From NCBI GenBank assembly GCA_017436305.1, contig JAFSDJ010000058.1, forward strand, positions 1-53,529: a stretch of 53,529 nt of DNA, written 5' to 3'. Positions 1,657-53,529 of this stretch are shown here, in pieces. Numbering within the stretch: the first letter of the stretch is position 1; every line of letters begins with the position of its first letter. The notes beneath the pieces were generated by a model. That model was given only the letters and a program-made list of their open reading frames with translations, was not told where the DNA came from and did not search any database. A program made the position numbers and the translations under genes. This DNA is from Lachnospiraceae bacterium. Its GTDB lineage: Bacteria; Bacillota; Clostridia; Lachnospirales; Lachnospiraceae.

Positions 1657-4600
1657 ATGATACGAAGAAAAAAAGGGAAAAGCACAAAACGGTGGGCAGC
1701 AGCTATACTGGCAGCAGTAGTCTTGATGGAAAGCGGTTTAGGAAACGTCCGGATAAGTAGTGTTTTTGCCAAAGAGCAGGAGGAAAGTACCGTATCAGTC
1801 AACGAAATAAGTGTAGATATGGAATTTGACAGTCAGGCAGACATAGAAGCGCCGCCGGAAGAAAATACAGAGCCGGTTATTTATGAAGATACAGATGAGG
1901 TGTTAGGGGAAGCCGCTGCCTATCTTGCTAACACAGAAACAAAAAAAGTTGAAGTAGATATTACTTCCATTGCTACTACACAGATTTATAGAGACATGGA
2001 TTATTCCTTCCTAAAGGAATATGAGTTTGGTACAAATGTTGAAGCCAAGCCAACAGTTACCTTTGGTAGTACGGAAGAATTAGGAAAAAGTAAGGACCTA
2101 AGACTGACTGCCGGAAGAATCATTAAAACAGAAGGCTACTATGAAAGTGGAGATGGTGGAAGTGCTGTTTATGAGATTTTAACCGAATACGATATGGGAA
2201 AGGCAAACAGAAAAGAAGGTGCCATACAGTTAGCAAACGGATTGTATGCCTGCATTCTTCCGGATGTTTATGAGATAAATGGACAGAAATGGATACTCAT
2301 AAATGTTAAACAGTATGGTGCAATAGGAGATGGTGTAACACCGGCTCATGCAGGATTAAGTGCGGCTTTTTTCAGTGTATCCAAGCATGTGGCTTGGGAT
2401 GATGCAGAGGATAATGAGATTGTCAGGGGAATTGCATATATCCCGGCCGGTGAATATAAATGTGCAAAAGAAGTAACGTCCGATGGTCTTAAGAATGTAA
2501 ACATTGTAGGCGATGGTGACTCTACTGTTTTGTTTACTGACAATGATTATCGAAAAGACGAAGGCTATTCAGAATTCTTTTTTGCAGTATGGAACGCAAG
2601 TAATACTTATTTTGGAGATTTCAGAATTGAGGCAAGGGAAGTAGATTTATATAATTATATGAGGCAGTTTGTTCTGGTTTATTGTGACAATATTTACATT
2701 TATAACGTGGATTTAATTGTGCCTCAGGAGGCTTATTCCGGTTATTATTATGAGGACAAGCAGTACTCTAACTTCACTTGCTATAGTGGTGATACAAACA
2801 TTACGGTAGACGCTTGTACCATGATTCAGTTTAGTGGAACCTATAGAGGCGCCAACGTAGGAATTCTGGATTTCTGGGATAAGGAAGTAAAAAACATTAC
2901 GGTCATGAACTGTGATTTGTACAGCAATGCCAGAGACGAACAGATTGGTATTTTTAACATTCCAAAAACCGGTGCAGTGGAAAATAAGAACACCAGTATT
3001 CGTAACATTGATTTGATTAACAATACGATACATACCACTCCGGTAAAGTATGAGGAAGTTGTGGGCAATCAAAATATGTGTTTTACTGTGGCATACGCAG
3101 ACTCAGTAAGAATTGATGATGTTCGAATTGCAGGAAATCACTTTATTTGTGAAGTGGATTCCAAGTTTATGACCTTTGGAACCATTACCAATTGTGTAGT
3201 GGAAAATAATATCATCGAGATTACATCTACCAGAAATAATGGTGCCAGCGTTTTTGATTCCAGCAATTCGGATACTAAGAGCATTCTTATCAGGAATAAT
3301 GAGTTTTTCTTAACCAGCGCAGATGGAAAACGGGGAAAAGCCAGCTTTACACAAGGAAAAATGACCTTTGAAGGAAACCGGGTAGTTTCAGACGGGCTTA
3401 TGACTAACTATGTTGTGGGACAGGTAGCAAAAAACAACGTATTTATTTTCTTAAAACAAGTTTCCTATATTACTGCTGCAGTGGATTTAGTAGAAAATAA
3501 CACTTTTTATCTCTATGGTGGTGCTAGTGGTGGCAATTGTAATGGTGTATTTGATTTAAGTGCCGCCAGTGGAAAAACAGAAATATCTGTTAAAAATAAT
3601 ACCGTGTATGATTATAAATACCATATTGGAAAAAGAACAGTATGGCAGGCTTTAGCTAATGTGTCTGGCCATGATGAAAAGATAAGTGCAGAGTTTAGTG
3701 GCAACACTTATTATGCTCCTAACAGAAAATTTACAAGTGCCGATCATTACAGTAAAGATGATGTTAAAGCGGATGTAGACTGGATTACGGATGAAAATGG
3801 AAAAGACCGGATAACCGGCTACTATAACCGAATGTTTTATATGCGTGTACCTGATGATACTTCCACTTGTAACTTGAAAGAGCTTATTTTTGAAAATAAT
3901 ACCTTGCAGGGAGTCAAGGGGTACGTAGAGTGGAATAATGGTGTAAAGGAAGATGGCAGCCGTCCGGTTGAATATGTCATCAGTAATAATACAACCCTTC
4001 CTTATAACGAGAATTTAAGTGAAGATAACCTTCTAGCCAGCAGTGTTGATATCCTTTACAACAATGAAAAGGCAACAGAAATTGCAGTCACAGGGGATAC
4101 AGTAAAACTGGATAAAATCGTGCGTGTAGCAGAAAGAGATGAAGATGGAAATATCTTAGAGGAGCAGGAAGTATCAGATAAGGAAATCAAGTGGTATACA
4201 TCCGTTGACAGCATGGCAACAGTAAGCCAGGATGGCACTGTTACCAGAAAATTATACGGAGATGTTAAAGTATTTGCAGTTGCTACAGACGGAAGTGCTG
4301 TTTATGGAGAATGTACCATTCATTTCTTAAAAAACACAGCAACCAGTCTTTCTTTTTCAGAGGAGACGGTGGAGCTTCAACCGGGTCTGAAATACTATGC
4401 AGATTATGTAGTATTGCCGGAGGCAGAAACGTCACAGAATTTAAAGTGGACATCTTCCGATGAAAATGTGGCAACAGTGTCAAAAACGGGTCTTATTACC
4501 GCAGTTTCTGTTGGTAAAGCGGTGATTACCGGTACAACTACCGATGGAACCAATCTTTCAGCCTCCTTATCCGTGAATGTAACACCGGTTACTGTGAAGA

Positions 4601-7239
4601 AAATGACCATGGATAACACCTGGCTGTACTTCACACAGGAACAGATTGGTGAAAGCAAACAGTTAGCCATTAAAAACTACACACCGGACAATGCTGCCAA
4701 TAAAACAGTAAAAAGATGGGAGAGCACTGACAGAACAGTTGCAACTGTGGATGCACAGGGAAAGGTTAAGGTTGTGGGAAGTGGAAGGACGGAAATACGG
4801 GCGTATTCCACTGATGAATATTGCTATGCCAAATGTGTGATTTATGTGCAGTCACCTCAGGTAACAAATTTTAAAGCCACATCGGTTCTTAAAAATAAAG
4901 TGACCCTTTCCTGGGATCCGGTGGAGAAAAGCTATGGATATTTTCTCTATCAGTGGAATTCTTCTACCAACAAGTGGGAGGCATTGAATAATGGTAGAAC
5001 ATTAGAGAAGGATACAACTTCTTATTCAGTGAGTAACCTTACCGCTGGCACGGAGTACAAGTTCTGTGTTCGCGCCTATTATTGGAACAACTCCGACTTG
5101 GAGCATTGTCCATATGAAAGTAAGGACAGTATTGTTACAGTAAAAACATATGGGTATAACCCGGTTACTTCCATTATGGGAGCAAGTGATGTGTTTACCA
5201 TTGTGGATTATGGCTGGAAAAATCATCAGGATACTTTTACTATAAAGTATAATTCCAATGCTGATTACGAAAATCTGGATTTTGATTATAAAGTCGCAGA
5301 TGAAAGCATTGTTAAAATTGTATCAGTGGAAGATGGAAGTAATGCCGGAGAGAAAAGCATTAAGTTAGAAGGGCTTAAATATGGCACTACAACTCTTACG
5401 GTTACAGCTAATGATGGCGGCAATGCATCTGCAGAAATTCCGGTGGGCTTTATAATAAATAACAGTGTTAGTAACTGCGAAGCAGATCCTGTCTACAAGC
5501 AGACTACCATTTCCTTTGATGGCTTGGAGGACGAATCAAACATTGACGGATATTATGTACGTTCCATGGTTACCATGTATACTTATAATGAAGTGGCATA
5601 TATTCCCAAAACAGGTGCAGGTACTTATAGTGTGGTGGATAAGAATGTAAATGTAGGAGCCGGTCCACAGAGTGGTGGATATAGATATGTAGTCAGTCCA
5701 TGTCTCACAGATGGTACCAACTACTATCTGGGAGCTGGAAAGACAGCCAATGAAAGCATTAATAATGGCATTGTGCAGATACCGGAGCCTACAAAGGCAG
5801 AAAGCCTGGAGATGGGACAGACCCGGTACGTTGTAAAAGGCGGAGAAACAATAGAAGTATCGGCTTCTGTTGGCAATGAAGATGCATCTACCAGTGAGTT
5901 ATACTGGGAAGTTATTAATGAAAACTATGCAGGGATTGAACGGATAGAGAGAACAGATGGGGAAATACTCACCGACTATGCCAAAGTTACAGGCAAGAAT
6001 GCCGGTGTTACAAAGATTAAAGCAGTTACAACCGACGGCTCAGAAATAGAGAAATACGCAAAATTAATTGTGGCACCACAATCGGTAGAAAATTTAAAGG
6101 CAGAGTCACAGTTTACTAATGTAACCTTAAGTTGGACGGATATTAAAAATGCAGACGGCTATGGGATTTACAGATGGGATGAGAAGAAAAATAAGTTTGA
6201 GCTGTTAGCAGAAACTACAGAGGCTTTCTATAAAGATACCGGTTTAGAAGCGGACACTGCTTATCGGTATAAAATTGCTGCATATATACATGTAGAAGGA
6301 GTAAGGTATGATGGAAACTATTCGCCAGAAATAGGTGTGACCACTGCAAGCACCAATTACGGAATTTACGCAACCGGATATTCAGGTTGTTATGATGGAA
6401 AGAGTCATAATGCAGTAACTTTAAAGGGTGTAAAGGAAAACATAGACAAGGTTACTTATAGTAAAGATTCAAAAAACTGGTCTGCCACAGTGCCAACTGT
6501 AACAGAAGTAAAAGATAGTGGCAATATTTGCATCAAGATAGAAAGACAAGGTCAGACGAAACCTTATCAGATAACTGTTGCAGCAACTGTGTCACCTGTT
6601 TTAGTTGAGCAGACGGATATTGTGTTAAAAACCGGATTAGTGGAATGGGATGGAAAAAATCATACTCCGGAAGTTGTATCAAATACATGCGCAGTAGACA
6701 AAGATTATACGGTAAGCGGCATTAAAAAATATAAAAACCAGGGTGTCTATACGATAACTGTAACCGGAATGGGCAATTACACCGGCACCAAAAAGCTGAC
6801 TTATAAAATTCAGGTAGTAAAGGGCCATAAATATAAACTTTCAGGATATATTTACAAGGTAACCGGAAGCAGTACTGTTTCAGTTACCGGTATTACCAAC
6901 AAGAAAAAGACCACCGTCACTGTGAAAGATACTGTTAAAATCGGAGGCAAAAAGTATAAGATTACAGCCATTGGTAACAGTGCATTTAAAAATTGCAAAA
7001 AGCTGAAAAAAGTAACTATCGGAAAATATGTTACTACTATTGGGAAAAATGCGTTCTATGGAGATAAGAAGCTTAAGAAAATTGTAATAAAGACCAAGAA
7101 ACTGAAAAAGGTTGGAAAAAATGCACTAAAAGGCATTAGCAAAACAGCACAGATACAAGTGCCAAAAAGCAAACGGAGTAAATACAAAAAACTGTTTAAA
7201 AAGTCTACGGGTTATGTTTCTACAATGAAGGTGAAATAG
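1657..7239 (+). CDS. Giant secreted multidomain surface protein: beta-helix, Big_2, FN3 and LRR_5 domains (1860 aa)
   Basis: The ATG at 1657 is preferred over the upstream TTG at 1630 because GAAAGGGG at 1640-1647 lies just before it and the product then begins with a signal peptide: MIRRKKGKSTKRW, a hydrophobic stretch, and probable cleavage after VFA (residue 38). Residues about 217-790 start with VKQYGAIGDG, the typical opening of pectate-lyase-3-like right-handed beta-helices, and contain many short NNT/NN-rich turns. Then follow bacterial Ig-like group 2 domains (about 802-1065, each ending in a version of WxSxDxxVATVSxxGxVT), a fibronectin III domain (about 1068-1164), more Ig-like and FN3 units (to about 1562), an MBG-like unit (about 1648-1723) and a lysine-rich LRR_5/BspA-like tail (1725-1860). 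There is no LPXTG motif. A role in binding or cutting polysaccharide at the cell surface is inferred; no catalytic residues could be assigned. Confidence 0.8.
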   Translation: MIRRKKGKSTKRWAAAILAAVVLMESGLGNVRISSVFAKEQEESTVSVNEISVDMEFDSQADIEAPPEENTEPVIYEDTDEVLGEAAAYLANTETKKVEVDITSIATTQIYRDMDYSFLKEYEFGTNVEAKPTVTFGSTEELGKSKDLRLTAGRIIKTEGYYESGDGGSAVYEILTEYDMGKANRKEGAIQLANGLYACILPDVYEINGQKWILINVKQYGAIGDGVTPAHAGLSAAFFSVSKHVAWDDAEDNEIVRGIAYIPAGEYKCAKEVTSDGLKNVNIVGDGDSTVLFTDNDYRKDEGYSEFFFAVWNASNTYFGDFRIEAREVDLYNYMRQFVLVYCDNIYIYNVDLIVPQEAYSGYYYEDKQYSNFTCYSGDTNITVDACTMIQFSGTYRGANVGILDFWDKEVKNITVMNCDLYSNARDEQIGIFNIPKTGAVENKNTSIRNIDLINNTIHTTPVKYEEVVGNQNMCFTVAYADSVRIDDVRIAGNHFICEVDSKFMTFGTITNCVVENNIIEITSTRNNGASVFDSSNSDTKSILIRNNEFFLTSADGKRGKASFTQGKMTFEGNRVVSDGLMTNYVVGQVAKNNVFIFLKQVSYITAAVDLVENNTFYLYGGASGGNCNGVFDLSAASGKTEISVKNNTVYDYKYHIGKRTVWQALANVSGHDEKISAEFSGNTYYAPNRKFTSADHYSKDDVKADVDWITDENGKDRITGYYNRMFYMRVPDDTSTCNLKELIFENNTLQGVKGYVEWNNGVKEDGSRPVEYVISNNTTLPYNENLSEDNLLASSVDILYNNEKATEIAVTGDTVKLDKIVRVAERDEDGNILEEQEVSDKEIKWYTSVDSMATVSQDGTVTRKLYGDVKVFAVATDGSAVYGECTIHFLKNTATSLSFSEETVELQPGLKYYADYVVLPEAETSQNLKWTSSDENVATVSKTGLITAVSVGKAVITGTTTDGTNLSASLSVNVTPVTVKKMTMDNTWLYFTQEQIGESKQLAIKNYTPDNAANKTVKRWESTDRTVATVDAQGKVKVVGSGRTEIRAYSTDEYCYAKCVIYVQSPQVTNFKATSVLKNKVTLSWDPVEKSYGYFLYQWNSSTNKWEALNNGRTLEKDTTSYSVSNLTAGTEYKFCVRAYYWNNSDLEHCPYESKDSIVTVKTYGYNPVTSIMGASDVFTIVDYGWKNHQDTFTIKYNSNADYENLDFDYKVADESIVKIVSVEDGSNAGEKSIKLEGLKYGTTTLTVTANDGGNASAEIPVGFIINNSVSNCEADPVYKQTTISFDGLEDESNIDGYYVRSMVTMYTYNEVAYIPKTGAGTYSVVDKNVNVGAGPQSGGYRYVVSPCLTDGTNYYLGAGKTANESINNGIVQIPEPTKAESLEMGQTRYVVKGGETIEVSASVGNEDASTSELYWEVINENYAGIERIERTDGEILTDYAKVTGKNAGVTKIKAVTTDGSEIEKYAKLIVAPQSVENLKAESQFTNVTLSWTDIKNADGYGIYRWDEKKNKFELLAETTEAFYKDTGLEADTAYRYKIAAYIHVEGVRYDGNYSPEIGVTTASTNYGIYATGYSGCYDGKSHNAVTLKGVKENIDKVTYSKDSKNWSATVPTVTEVKDSGNICIKIERQGQTKPYQITVAATVSPVLVEQTDIVLKTGLVEWDGKNHTPEVVSNTCAVDKDYTVSGIKKYKNQGVYTITVTGMGNYTGTKKLTYKIQVVKGHKYKLSGYIYKVTGSSTVSVTGITNKKKTTVTVKDTVKIGGKKYKITAIGNSAFKNCKKLKKVTIGKYVTTIGKNAFYGDKKLKKIVIKTKKLKKVGKNALKGISKTAQIQVPKSKRSKYKKLFKKSTGYVSTMKVK

Positions 7240-16511: not shown

Positions 16512-17873
16512 ATGTTAGAGAAACTATTCAAACTAAAAGAAAGCAACACAAATGCAAAAACAGAAGTACTTGCAGGAATCACTACTTTTATGACAATGGC
16601 TTACATTCTTGCAGTCAATCCAAGTATTTTAAGTGCAGCAGGCATGGACCCTACAGCGGTACTTCTTGCTACAGCAATTGCTTCCTTTATTGGTACAGCT
16701 TGTATGGCGTTTATGGCAAATTTACCGTTTGCTTTGTCAGCCGGTATGGGACTTAATGCCTATATGGCGTATACAGTTGTACTTGGCTATGGGTATACGT
16801 GGCAGGTTGCTTTATTAGCAGTATTTGTAGAAGGGATTGTTTTTATTGTACTGTCTTTAACCAATGTGCGAGAAGCAATTTTTAATGCAATTCCATTAAA
16901 CCTGAAAAAAGGCGTATCAGTGGGGATTGGTTTATTTATTGCTTTTATCGGACTTCAAAATGCAGGTTTATCTGTAGATTCTTCTACTTTAGTAACCATT
17001 ACGGACTTTACAGAGAATTTCAATACTTCCGGTATTTGTGCAGTACTGGCTATTGTAGGATTGTTTATTACAGCAATTTTGTATATTAAAAATGTGAAAG
17101 GTTCCATATTAATCGGTATTGTAGCAACCTGGCTTATTGGTATGGTTTGTCAGCTTGTAGGAATTTATGTACCAAATCCGGAAGCCGGTTATTACACTTT
17201 GTTCCCATCACTTTCCATTACAGATTTTAGTAAACTCGGAGAGACCTTTGGACAATGTTTTAATGTAGATATAAATGGACTTGGAATATTTAATTTTATA
17301 GTGATTGTTTTTTCTTTCCTTTTTGTTGATATATTTGATACTTTAGGAACATTAATCGGTGTCAGTACAAAAGCTAAAATGCTGGATGAAAACGGACGTC
17401 TTCCAAAAATTAAACCGGCACTTATGGCAGATGCTATTGGAACTACAGCCGGTGCAGTACTTGGTACTTCTACCACCACCACCTTTGTAGAATCAGCATC
17501 CGGTGTAGCGGCAGGAGGACGTACAGGACTTACCGCATTGGTAACAGGCTTATTATTTCTTGTTTCCACCTTATTTGCTCCGATTTTTACTGCCATTCCA
17601 TCCTTTGCCACAGCGCCGGCACTGATTATGGTAGGTTTCCTTATGTTTGGAGCAATTACAGATATTAAATTTACCGATGACAATTTGACAGAAGCAATAC
17701 CTGCATATTTGTGTATTATTGCAATGCCATTATTCTATAGTATTTCAGAAGGTATTTCCTTTGGAATCATTTCCTATGTAGTATTAAATGCAGTAACTGG
17801 AAAAGCAAAAAAAGTAACACCGCTTATGTATGTGTTGGCTGTGTTATTTATTCTTAAATATATGTTTCTGTAG
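16512..17873 (+). CDS. AzgA/PbuG-type purine (hypoxanthine/guanine/adenine) permease
   Basis: A 453-residue polytopic membrane protein of the NCS2-like AzgA family. TEVLAGITTFMTMAYILAVNPSIL is the characteristic N-terminus (split here as TEVLAGITTF and MTMAYILAVNP), and GTSTTTTFVESASGVAAGGRTG is the conserved substrate-site loop (GTSTTTTFVES, then GGRTG). The position behind apt supports purine-base uptake. The exact base cannot be told. I saw no purine riboswitch in the 114-bp gap. The start at 16512 follows AGAAAGAGG. Confidence 0.92.
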   Translation: MLEKLFKLKESNTNAKTEVLAGITTFMTMAYILAVNPSILSAAGMDPTAVLLATAIASFIGTACMAFMANLPFALSAGMGLNAYMAYTVVLGYGYTWQVALLAVFVEGIVFIVLSLTNVREAIFNAIPLNLKKGVSVGIGLFIAFIGLQNAGLSVDSSTLVTITDFTENFNTSGICAVLAIVGLFITAILYIKNVKGSILIGIVATWLIGMVCQLVGIYVPNPEAGYYTLFPSLSITDFSKLGETFGQCFNVDINGLGIFNFIVIVFSFLFVDIFDTLGTLIGVSTKAKMLDENGRLPKIKPALMADAIGTTAGAVLGTSTTTTFVESASGVAAGGRTGLTALVTGLLFLVSTLFAPIFTAIPSFATAPALIMVGFLMFGAITDIKFTDDNLTEAIPAYLCIIAMPLFYSISEGISFGIISYVVLNAVTGKAKKVTPLMYVLAVLFILKYMFL

Positions 17874-17890
17874 TTAATATCTATCTGATA

Positions 17891-17965
17891 GCATAAAAAA
17901 GAACACTAATTTCAAAACCTGCAACAACTGTTGTAAAGGTACTTGAAATTAGTGTTTTTTTATGC
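17891..17965 (+). terminator. Extended hairpin terminator behind the purine permease
   Basis: Arms 17891-17915 and 17943-17965 pair almost perfectly (one 2-nt bulge). The right arm contains a run of seven T. The tip of the hairpin is a second, branched structure that recurs behind sigF. Confidence 0.85.
17902..17956 (+). repeat. 55-nt conserved palindromic element, copy A
   Basis: Same length as copy B at 53334-53388, with 43 of 55 positions identical. The structure is an outer stem of 14 bp, then ACCT/AGGT, then an inner 5-bp CAAC/GTTG helix with a 4-nt loop. Pairs 2/54, 7/49 and 8/48 differ between copies but stay complementary. Confidence 0.75.
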
Positions 17966-18069
17966 CTGAGTACAGGATTTTCAAATCCATGAGTTAGCAA
18001 TAGATTACTGTTCAGTCAGCAGCAAAACACTTGTTGTTTTGTTGCGTATGAATATTACTATATTCGAGC

Positions 18070-18857: not shown

Positions 18858-18883
18858 AAGTGGGACATATAAATAGTAAATAC

Positions 18884-18976
18884 ATGCTAGGGGAGTCCAT
18901 AAGGGCTGAGAGTGTAGGAATTCCTACTAACCCTCACTACCTGAACCAGATCATACTGGCGTAGGGAAGCATATTT
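18884..18976 (+). ncRNA. TPP riboswitch (THI box)
   Basis: Contains the landmark segments of the thiamine pyrophosphate aptamer in order: GGGGAGTCC, GGGCTGAGAG, AACCCTCACTACCTGA and CTGGCGTAGGGAAGC. It lies upstream of a thiamine transporter, which is the expected target. Ligand binding normally switches expression off. Confidence 0.93.
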
Positions 18977-19138
18977 CCTGTTTTACATCTAGCCATGTGC
19001 GCGCCATGGAGTATTTAAGGTTATTGTTTATGTAGCACCAATGGTTTATCATAACAGAGTAAACAGTAGCGTTTTTGAAGTTTCAATAGGAATAAGAGAA
19101 TTTCAGAAATAACATACAGGAAATATATTTTAGTGACC

Positions 19139-52484: not shown

Positions 52485-53204
52485 ATGGATCAAAATTTAC
52501 ATCTCATATCACAGGCAAAACAGGGAGATAAAGAAGCAAGAGATGTACTGATTCAGGAGAATTTAGGATTAGTCCGTCATATTGTGAAGCGATTTGGAAA
52601 TCGTGGTTATGAAATGGAGGATTTATTCCAGATAGGTACCATTGGTCTTATAAAGGCTATTGATAAATTTGATATGGAATACGGAGTGCAGTTTTCAACC
52701 TATGCAGTTCCTTTGATTATGGGAGAAATTAAGCGTTTTTTAAGGGATGATGGATTAGTAAAAGTATCCAGAACATTAAAAGAAAATGGCTATAAGATAC
52801 GACAGGCAGAGGAAAAAATTTCCTATATAAAAGGGCGTAATGCTACGTTGGAAGAGTTAGCCGAGGCTACAGGATTTACCAGAGAAGAAATCGTGCTTGC
52901 CATGGAGGCAAACACGGAGGTAGAGTCTATTTACAAACCGGTATATCAGTCTGATGGCAACGAAATTTATTTAGTAGACCAGATTGCAGATAAGGAAAAT
53001 GATAAAGAAAAATTGCTGAATCACATAATGATTACAAAGCTTTTAGATGAACTTGATGAAAAAGAAAGGGAACTTATAACTTTGAGATATTTTCAGGATA
53101 AGACTCAGGTGGAGGTGGCCAAGAAGTTGGGGGTTAGCCAGGTGCAGGTTAGCAGGTTGGAAAAGAAGATATTGATACGGATGAAGCGGGAGCTTACTGT
53201 TTAA
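52485..53204 (+). CDS. sigF: RNA polymerase sigma-F factor (forespore)
   Basis: The early forespore sigma factor (SpoIIAC). At 239 residues its length is normal. Region 2 contains ENLGLVRHIVKRFGNRGYEM, then EDLFQIGTIGLIKAIDKFD and FSTYAVPLIMGEIKRFLRDD; region 3 is LEELAEATGFTREEIVLAM; region 4 is ITLRYFQDKTQVEVAKKLGV, then SQVQVSRLEKKIL. Its TAA stop lies inside the first unit of a tandem repeat that begins at 53201. The operon with spoIIAA and spoIIAB shows a spore-forming lineage. Confidence 0.97.
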   Translation: MDQNLHLISQAKQGDKEARDVLIQENLGLVRHIVKRFGNRGYEMEDLFQIGTIGLIKAIDKFDMEYGVQFSTYAVPLIMGEIKRFLRDDGLVKVSRTLKENGYKIRQAEEKISYIKGRNATLEELAEATGFTREEIVLAMEANTEVESIYKPVYQSDGNEIYLVDQIADKENDKEKLLNHIMITKLLDELDEKERELITLRYFQDKTQVEVAKKLGVSQVQVSRLEKKILIRMKRELTV

Positions 53205-53333
53205 TTGAGGACGATACTGGGGAGGATGGGGGGTTTTAATTGAGGACGATACCGGGGAGGATGGGGGTTTTTTAATTGAGGACGATACCGGGGAGAATGG
53301 GGGTTTTTAATTGAGGACGATACCGGGGAGGAT
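53201..53333 (+). repeat. Tandem array of 35/36-bp units starting at the sigF stop codon
   Basis: Units begin at 53201, 53236, 53272 and 53307, each with TTAATTGAGGACGATAC and CGGGGAGGATGGGGG (first unit with one C-to-T change, third with one G-to-A change). The fourth breaks off after GGGGAGGAT, where copy B of the palindrome begins. No ORF of note lies in it. Confidence 0.9.
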
Positions 53334-53403
53334 AGCACTGTTTTCAAAACCTACAACACCCGTTGTCAAGGTGTTTGAAAACAGTGCTATCCTCCCCGGT
53401 ATC
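53319..53403 (+). repeat. Large perfect inverted repeat containing copy B of the 55-nt palindrome
   Basis: Arms 53319-53348 and 53374-53403 are exact reverse complements over 30 bases. The inner part 53334-53388 matches copy A (17902-17956) at 43 of 55 positions with three compensated pairs. The outer 15 bases on each side come from the flanking tandem arrays. No T run follows, so termination is uncertain. Confidence 0.9.
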
Positions 53404-53529
53404 TGTGTATGGAGAAAAAACTGGAAATGTTACCCCGGTATCTGTGTATGGAGAAAAAACTGGAAATGTTACCCCGGTATCTGTGTATGGAGAAAAAACT
53501 GGAAATGTTACCCCGGTATCTGTGTATGG
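53394..53529 (+). repeat. Tandem array of 39-bp units, running off the window
   Basis: Exact copies start at 53394, 53433, 53472 and 53511 (each beginning CCCCGGTATCTGTGTATGG and ending ACTGGAAATGTTA); the last is cut by the window end. The units have no differences in the part seen, which implies recent expansion. The CCCCGGTATC start is complementary to GATACCGGGG in the left-hand units. Confidence 0.9.

What the first reader, a model, noticed from the sequence alone, without database searches (positions are those of the whole stretch)
17902..17956. A 55-nt branched palindrome shared with the region behind sigF, with compensated base pairs
Two elements 35 kb apart (17902-17956 and 53334-53388) have the same length, 43 of 55 identical positions, and fold the same way: a 14-bp outer stem, an ACCT/AGGT helix, an inner CAAC/GTTG helix and a 4-nt loop. 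At three pairs (2/54, 7/49, 8/48) both bases changed and pairing was kept (A-T to G-C, A-T to G-C, A-T to T-A). This is evidence of selection or copying at the structure level. Outside the core the stems are unrelated but still pair. Both copies lie just behind the 3' end of a gene. It may be a dispersed palindromic element (REP or MITE-like), a terminator-tip family, or an RNA or protein binding site. I know no named family that matches.
Basis: seen in the sequence. Interest (0 to 1): 0.75.

Follow-up and report, generated by a model that had tools for sequence, protein, structure and literature searches.

The report
Shared hairpin tip behind unrelated genes
The two matching hairpins belong to a family of about 25 in this bacterium's genome, in which the same small hairpin tip sits on stems of mostly unrelated sequence, usually just behind genes, like a REP-type DNA repeat whose tip is the conserved part.

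Summary
It is no two-copy coincidence: a covariance model finds 24 places in this Lachnospiraceae genome at E below 1e-6, and two weaker ones fit by eye. It finds none in 396 other family genomes (E<=1e-4) and one weak hit, in a congener, among 97 relatives. The conserved part is a 22-nt tip (CCTACAACACCCGTTGTCAAGG). Beyond about 15 nt from the tip the stems mostly differ between copies, yet each pairs with itself (median 28 Watson-Crick pairs; swapped arms, 2). Eight of 25 copies have an exact GGAC foot 30-34 nt below the tip. In 19 of 24 a same-strand gene ends just upstream. Five congeners carry other large hairpin families; two (Fa, Fb) were sought here and not found. Some use the same GGAC foot, and there tips and feet recombine while arms still match. 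Best reading: a lineage-specific, REP-like, non-autonomous palindromic repeat whose tip has been placed on unrelated hairpin stems; some copies, 17902 included, may also act as terminators. No transposase was identified (no PF01797 here). Mobility and mechanism are inferred, not shown.

The parts
16512..17873 (+). Upstream gene of copy 1: nucleobase permease family (Xan_ur_permease)
   Evidence: ORF list; Pfam PF00860 E 1.1e-41
17897..17917 (+). Left arm of copy 1, opening with an A run
   Evidence: Arm alignment 21/22 nt, 19 Watson-Crick pairs plus 1 G-T
17918..17939 (+). Conserved 22-nt tip of copy 1 (CCTGCAACAACTGTTGTAAAGG)
   Evidence: Covariance model hit C49:17901-17954, E 1.1e-10; fold
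17940..17961 (+). Right arm of copy 1, ending in a run of seven T: terminator-like
   Evidence: The simple terminator scan reports nothing here; it allows loops of 3-8 nt only
52485..53204 (+). Upstream gene of copy 2: sigma-70 family factor, consistent with sigF
   Evidence: Pfam Sigma70_r2/r3/r4
53200..53333 (+). Left tandem array, 35-bp unit x 3.8, repeating the GGAC foot and the outer left arm of copy 2
   Evidence: TRF; sequence
53315..53318 (+). GGAC foot, unpaired, directly before the stem
53319..53349 (+). Left arm of copy 2 (31 nt)
   Evidence: 31 Watson-Crick pairs, no mismatch, 1 gap nt
53350..53371 (+). Conserved 22-nt tip of copy 2 (CCTACAACACCCGTTGTCAAGG)
   Evidence: Model hit E 1.3e-13; within the 24-base core found exactly at 7 places
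53372..53403 (+). Right arm of copy 2 (32 nt), followed by TGTG
53394..53529 (+). Right tandem array, 39-bp unit x 3.5, repeating the end of the right arm plus TGTGTATGG; runs to the contig end
   Evidence: TRF

Best explanation
This is a lineage-specific family of about 25 REP-like dispersed hairpins. The conserved, probably recognised, unit is the 22-nt tip: CCT/AGG helix, small A-rich bulge, CAAC/GTTG helix, 4-nt loop. The tip sits on self-complementary stems that are mostly unrelated in sequence between subgroups, and a subset has a GGAC foot 30-34 nt below the tip. Shown: the copies, the conserved tip, the divergent but paired arms, the foot, the 3'-end placement, near-absence from the relatives searched, and, in congeners, other tips combined with more than one foot. 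Inferred: the tip spreads as a non-autonomous element, or by exchange, at the apex of existing hairpins, possibly while single-stranded during replication, so the arms belong to the hairpin it landed on. It persists behind genes because insertion there is harmless, and copies with a T run can serve as terminators. The enzyme is unknown.
For: 24 places at E<=7.8e-7 in the own genome, 7 of them not used to build the model, one of these 7 a near-duplicate of a model row. Tip mean identity 0.80 over 300 pairs of 25 copies, arms 0.25-0.34 beyond 15 nt. Own arms pair (median 28, 27 rows), swapped arms do not (median 2, n=702). Mid-arm similarity between 7 GGAC-class representatives is at most slight once the bases next to foot and tip are left out: mean z 0.70 over 21 pairs, against 0.26 for random 21-mers. 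Exact GGAC foot at 30-34 nt in 8 of 25. Congeners: of 13 Fb tips, 5 are on foot b, 3 on foot d, 1 on foot a with GGAC, 1 matched a and c, 3 matched none on both arms; of 9 Fa tips, 8 are on foot a and 1 in a stem with both a and b ends; the GGAC foot carries tips Fa (8 of 9), Fc (10 of 11) and Fb (1 of 13). Presence is complementary: Fa and Fb queries match in all 5 congeners and not in the own genome at E<=1e-10; the own tip matches in 0 of 53 stretches behind the corresponding congener genes. tatD-ksgA gene order is kept in 5 of 5 congeners without this element.
Against: No transposase, no target duplication and no strain with an empty site were found. One subgroup (C97, C23, C102b, C48, C44) shares its whole stem, so whole-hairpin copying also happens. 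A sixth copy, C75, resembles C9b, C23, C48 and C44 weakly (z 3.1-3.6) when the foot-proximal bases are counted, and the other GGAC-class pairs average z 1.06 in that test, which hints at diverged common stems; with those bases left out C75 scores 1.5 with C102b and 2.4 with C9b. In 453 kb of the own genome no GGAC-footed hairpin of 13 or more pairs without the tip was seen, so tip-free targets are not demonstrated. Stem lengths cluster at 30-34 nt in the GGAC class, which random target hairpins would not predict. One weak match exists in a congener (G005, E 0.001). Only 17% of the own genome was surveyed for hairpins.
Confidence: 0.48

Rival explanations
1. Whole-hairpin mobile element, MITE- or REP-like: foot, stem and tip move together. 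The stem then drifts fast while template switching between the arms, or selection for the hairpin, keeps it paired, so old copies look unrelated outside tip and foot.
For: Five copies share stem and tip with some compensated changes, by eye in the output, and C75 resembles four GGAC-class copies weakly (z 3.1-3.6). Stem length is nearly fixed (30-34 nt) in the 8 exact GGAC copies. Arms stay Watson-Crick (533 of 587 cells) without G-U preference, as template switching would give. Template switching is reported to create and maintain hairpins (PMC8794818, outline, abstract and opening lines seen).
Against: Apart from one weak match in G005 the family was not found in the five congeners, so there was little time for stems to randomise while tips stayed identical. 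By eye, Fa keeps its stem across congener species. Mid-arms of different subgroups show at most slight similarity (mean z 0.70 against 0.26 for random). Tips change foot in congeners.
Confidence: 0.32
2. Not mobile: a 3'-UTR RNA element or terminator cap, bound at its tip by a trans-acting factor.
For: Same-strand gene directly upstream in 19 of 24 copies with a left ORF (computed as 19 of 25, p 0.015). A run of 5 or more T in the 3' arm or base in 8 of 25, read by eye. Conserved bulge and loop.
Against: The upstream genes are functionally unrelated. A T-run score of at least 6 of 8 bases at the stem base is met on the sense strand in 2 of 25 and on the antisense strand in 5 of 25. There is no G-U excess (13 against 26 A-C, p 0.053 the other way). 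Not found in close relatives apart from one weak match.
Confidence: 0.15
3. Chance similarity or assembly artefact.
For: Copy 2 lies near a contig end between tandem arrays; 5 of the 26 places lie within 1 kb of a contig end (positions).
Against: About 25 copies on many contigs, 21 of 26 places more than 1 kb from a contig end; 0 matches to the reversed control pattern; covariation far above shuffles.
Confidence: 0.01

Closest known systems
CGTC- and GTAG-tagged REP repeats (Di Nocera et al. 2013, PMC3733652; abstract, passages and part 1 of the Discussion read)
   Same: Short dispersed palindromes with an unpaired tag at one foot, mainly downstream of genes, some families species-specific. 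Some REP units are reported inside other palindromes (A. variabilis GTAG-15, T. roseum GTAG-23, H. neapolitanus CGTC-1). CGTC repeats lack a dedicated transposase.
   Different: Their stems are 5-13 bp (GTAG) or 8-9 bp (CGTC) and part of the consensus; here stems are 13-43 nt and hypervariable and the tip is the consensus. The tag here is 5'-GGAC, in 8 of 25. The phyla listed for CGTC and GTAG repeats in the passages read do not include Firmicutes.
MITEs (definition recalled)
   Same: Short, non-autonomous, self-complementary, multicopy.
   Different: MITEs are defined by conserved terminal inverted repeats; here the arms are the variable part. No target duplication or parent transposon was found.
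Intrinsic (Rho-independent) terminators (definition recalled)
   Same: Hairpin behind a gene with a T run in several copies, copy 1 among them.
   Different: Shared tip, long stems, and by eye 7 of the 8 exact GGAC copies have no run of five T in the 3' arm or at its base.
Insertion sequences that target REP palindromes (ISPpu9, seen in the abstract of PMC8450116 in the listing; IS1397 is recalled)
   Same: Precedent for mobile DNA landing in palindromes.
   Different: Those are full insertion sequences with a transposase; this unit is about 22-40 nt.

Membership tests
REP repeats moved by RAYT (GTAG type) | GTAG tetranucleotide at the foot | tested here: not met
   The foot is GGAC in 8 of 25 and near variants in a few more by eye
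REP repeats moved by RAYT (GTAG type) | Y1 tyrosine transposase (PF01797) in the genome | tested here: not met
   0 in the own genome, 84% complete. Congener G001, 99% complete, has 0 too, yet 31 matches to the Fa query and 40 to the Fb query (matches, not elements, and the scored candidates are capped). The other four congeners each have one or two matches
CGTC REP repeats | Stem of 8-9 bp, loop 4-5, unpaired CGTC tag | tested here: not met
   Arms 13-43 nt. CGTC can be read only on the opposite strand, with its first C paired
CGTC REP repeats | Multicopy intergenic palindromes downstream of genes, no linked transposase | tested here: met
   (of transposases only PF01797 was searched)
MITE | Conserved terminal inverted repeats | tested here: not met
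   Arm identity near chance beyond 15 nt from the tip, except in one subgroup of 5 and weakly C75
MITE | Target site duplication | tested here: inconclusive
   None evident by eye in the flanks; no empty allele available
Intrinsic terminator | Hairpin followed by a T run, behind a gene | tested here: inconclusive
   8 of 25 by eye have 5 or more consecutive T; score-based test 2 of 25 sense, 5 of 25 antisense; pattern scan found none at copy 1
Known RNA family (Rfam 15) | Covariance model match at gathering score | tested here: not met
   Window: TPP riboswitch only, elsewhere. 18 loci: only a T-box reaches its gathering score, not at an element; below gathering, two microRNA models overlap the two copies on L048 and rnk_pseudo matches L125

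The most novel reading that the evidence does not exclude
Hairpin tips are themselves the mobile or exchangeable units. In this genus a small set of apex modules is moved onto, or swapped between, unrelated palindromic stems. Species can then carry different tip families on a shared GGAC-footed stem architecture, and both arms of a stem change together.
Probability: 0.38. Interest if true: 0.75.

Novelty: new variant of a known kind. Interest (0 to 1): 0.52.

Why it matters
The REP families described in the paper read are classed by their stems, loops and tags. A family conserved in its tip, with freely varying but paired stems, shows that compensated base pairs alone do not prove selection on an RNA. 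It also points to apex-targeted mobility, or arm-correcting replication, as a source of such hairpins. The genus offers a natural comparison: five species with two shared hairpin families, and a sixth in which both were sought and not found and which has its own tip.

Tried and rejected
Two-copy coincidence: rejected. Known RNA family: rejected at Rfam gathering scores. RAYT/REP system: PF01797 absent in the own genome and in G001. Autonomous parent with the same ends: inverted repeats 300-5000 bp apart in 453 kb own and 400 kb congener DNA gave none evident by eye. Spread beyond the species: core pattern 0 in genome contigs and viral contigs (near-identical genomes may be left out there); model R1 in 98 genomes gave only the own genome and a weak hit in G005, E 0.001, and in 397 family genomes only the own at E<=1e-4; both runs used stricter filters that lose weak matches. 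Regulon idea: the upstream genes share no evident function. RNA-level selection tested by G-U against A-C mispairs: no support. An over-permissive arm alignment was discarded and redone with strict scoring. The control averages failed (division by zero) and were redone with shorter mid-arms. Rows left out of counts: C9:53-106 (near-duplicate) and the G005 copy from the 25; L257 counted once, as Fa.

Literature: five paper searches returned no listing describing such a family in Lachnospiraceae; that is the only basis for calling it unreported.

Full report
Folding is far better than shuffles on both strands. The paired region is longer than reported: 17897-17961 for copy 1, and 53319-53403 for copy 2, whose arms pair without mismatch.

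It is a family. The window is one contig (C49) of a 2.6-Mb draft genome, 84% complete. The closest protein matches of a gene beside one copy (C48, ketol-acid reductoisomerase) are Lachnospiraceae, many of them metagenome assemblies; named ones include Konateibacter massiliensis and [Clostridium] polysaccharolyticum (capped list). The 24-base core occurs 14 times with up to 3 mismatches, 7 of them exact; the reversed control occurs 0 times. A covariance model from 17 copies finds 24 places at E<=7.8e-7; 7 of them are not in the model, one of these being a near-duplicate of a model row. C96 (E 0.023) and C58:27508 (E 0.29) fit by eye. I analysed 25: the 24 minus that near-duplicate (C9:53-106), plus those two.

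Anatomy. The tip is CCT-A-CAAC-ACCC-GTTG-TCA/AAA-AGG. On the 54-column alignment 87.8% of 238 cells pair, against 73.8% in shuffles (0 of 500 as high) and 26-44% with slid partners. Over 300 pairs of copies the tip averages 0.80 identity; the arms fall to 0.25-0.38 beyond 10 nt. Yet each left arm pairs with its own right arm (median 28 Watson-Crick pairs, range 13-39, 27 rows including the near-duplicate and the G005 copy) and seldom with others (median 2, 702 swaps; 31 swaps reach 15 or more pairs, many of them within the shared-stem subgroup). Eight of 25 have GGAC exactly 30-34 nt below the tip; in most of these the right arm ends in C followed by TG. Five copies share their whole stem. A sixth, C75, resembles C9b, C23, C48 and C44 weakly (z 3.1-3.6) when foot-proximal bases are counted, and the remaining GGAC-class pairs average z 1.06. 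With three foot-proximal and eight tip-proximal bases left out, seven representatives average z 0.70, against 0.26 for random 21-mers. So the conserved things are tip and foot, and the variable thing is the paired stem between them, with a hint of common ancestry in part of the GGAC class. Two copies (C102b, C15) carry a tip with a five-base block replaced, which breaks the inner helix.

Surroundings. In 19 of 24 copies with an identifiable left ORF, that gene runs in the direction of the tip and ends 27-172 nt before the 54-nt core (my own ORF caller). Two of those copies lie behind the same gene. The genes are unrelated: permease, sigma factor, TatD, ketol-acid reductoisomerase, FabH, MecA and others. 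By eye 8 of 25 have five or more consecutive T in or after the 3' arm, copy 1 among them; a stricter score at the stem base was met by only 2 of 25 on the sense strand and 5 of 25 on the antisense strand. Non-Watson-Crick cells in the arms are 13 G-T, 26 A-C and 15 others against 533 Watson-Crick. RNA selection on the sense strand would favour G-T, so this gives no support for it.

Relatives. The model finds nothing in 396 other family genomes at E<=1e-4 and one weak hit in 97 relatives at E<=0.1 (G005, a congener, E 0.001). It finds nothing in 53 stretches behind the corresponding genes in five congeners. At tatD-ksgA the gene order is kept in 5 of 5 congeners, and the model finds no copy there. 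Congeners carry other hairpins in such places: 8 of the 37 congener stretches printed show Fa or Fb tips, by eye. In 200 kb of G002 I counted 32 hairpins with at least 18 pairs, and in 200 kb of G003 10. Three tip families (Fa, Fb, Fc) give 33 tip matches in that DNA. Queries for Fa and Fb match in all five congeners (31-69 and 11-40 matches; matches are not elements, Fa and Fb are partly alike, and scored candidates are capped) and 0 times in the own genome at E<=1e-10; Fc was not searched there. Fa and Fc stems start with the same GGAC foot: 8 of 9 Fa and 10 of 11 Fc. Tips and feet recombine. Of 13 Fb tips, 5 sit on foot b, 3 on foot d, 1 on foot a with GGAC, 1 matched both a and c, and 3 matched none on both arms. 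One of 9 Fa tips lies in a stem with both a and b ends. The pattern tolerances were loose (up to 5 mismatches for d), so single odd matches may be chance; the clearest mixed cases are L264:11073-11308 (73 of 73 paired) and L257:16598-16826 (69 of 70).

Interpretation. If the stems had simply diverged, the tip family should be older than the species and common in congeners. It was not found there, save for one weak match, while Fa in congeners keeps its stem across species by eye. The stems of the own family therefore look acquired rather than inherited. The simplest mechanism is that a small REP-like unit lands at, or is copied into, the apex of hairpins. Precedent exists: REP units inside palindromes are reported for three species (PMC3733652, passages read). 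Against this, the GGAC class has a near-fixed stem length, part of it shows weak stem similarity, and I found no GGAC-footed hairpin of 13 or more pairs without the tip in 453 kb. Whole-element movement with arm-correcting template switching (mechanism described in PMC8794818, outline and abstract) stays a serious rival. On checking, the C75 similarity made me lower the best explanation from 0.50 to 0.48 and the novel case from 0.40 to 0.38, and raise this rival from 0.30 to 0.32. No enzyme was found; of transposases only PF01797 was searched. It is absent from the own genome and from G001, where the Fa and Fb queries match 31 and 40 times.

Verdict. A real, lineage-specific, REP-like hairpin family with an unusual division of constancy: tip and foot fixed, stem free but paired. 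A new variant of a known kind; mechanism open.

Noticed in passing
window 53200-53333 and 53394-53529 (TRF); L022 about 3595-3705 and 3775-3920 (C92, by eye); L016 about 765-835 and 895-1100 (C75, by eye): Three GGAC-class copies are flanked by tandem arrays whose units repeat the element's own foot plus some of its arm. Hairpin-provoked replication slippage or repeated one-sided insertion could explain this.
   Followed up: partly
L249-L268 and several of L099-L125 (congeners G001-G005): Abundant giant hairpin families (18-73 pairs, tips Fa, Fb, Fc), about one long hairpin per 6 kb in 200 kb of G002; no Rfam match above gathering in the copies tested.
   Followed up: partly
L014 (C9), 4330-4420: The arm of copy C9a contains CACCCGTTGTAATAGG, resembling half of the tip itself, as if an arm had been copied from an older tip.
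   Followed up: no
L014 (C9) 1-170 and 4446-4619: The 4.6-kb contig begins and ends with nearly the same stretch, each including one copy of the hairpin: a tandem duplication or circular form.
   Followed up: no
window about 18004-18052; L003 about 1770-1820; L156 1794-1836: A second dispersed hairpin repeat, around CAAAACACTTGYTGTTTTGTTGCGTATGAA, in at least three places of this genome, twice on the same stretch as a tip-bearing hairpin.
   Followed up: no
window 18879-18984: TPP riboswitch (RF00059, 72.5 bits).
   Followed up: no
L065 (G005:C57:4146-4198): A weak match to the tip model behind an epimerase gene in a congener, with a T run: possibly an ancestral-like terminator tip, or chance (E 0.001 per genome, 98 genomes searched).
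   Followed up: partly
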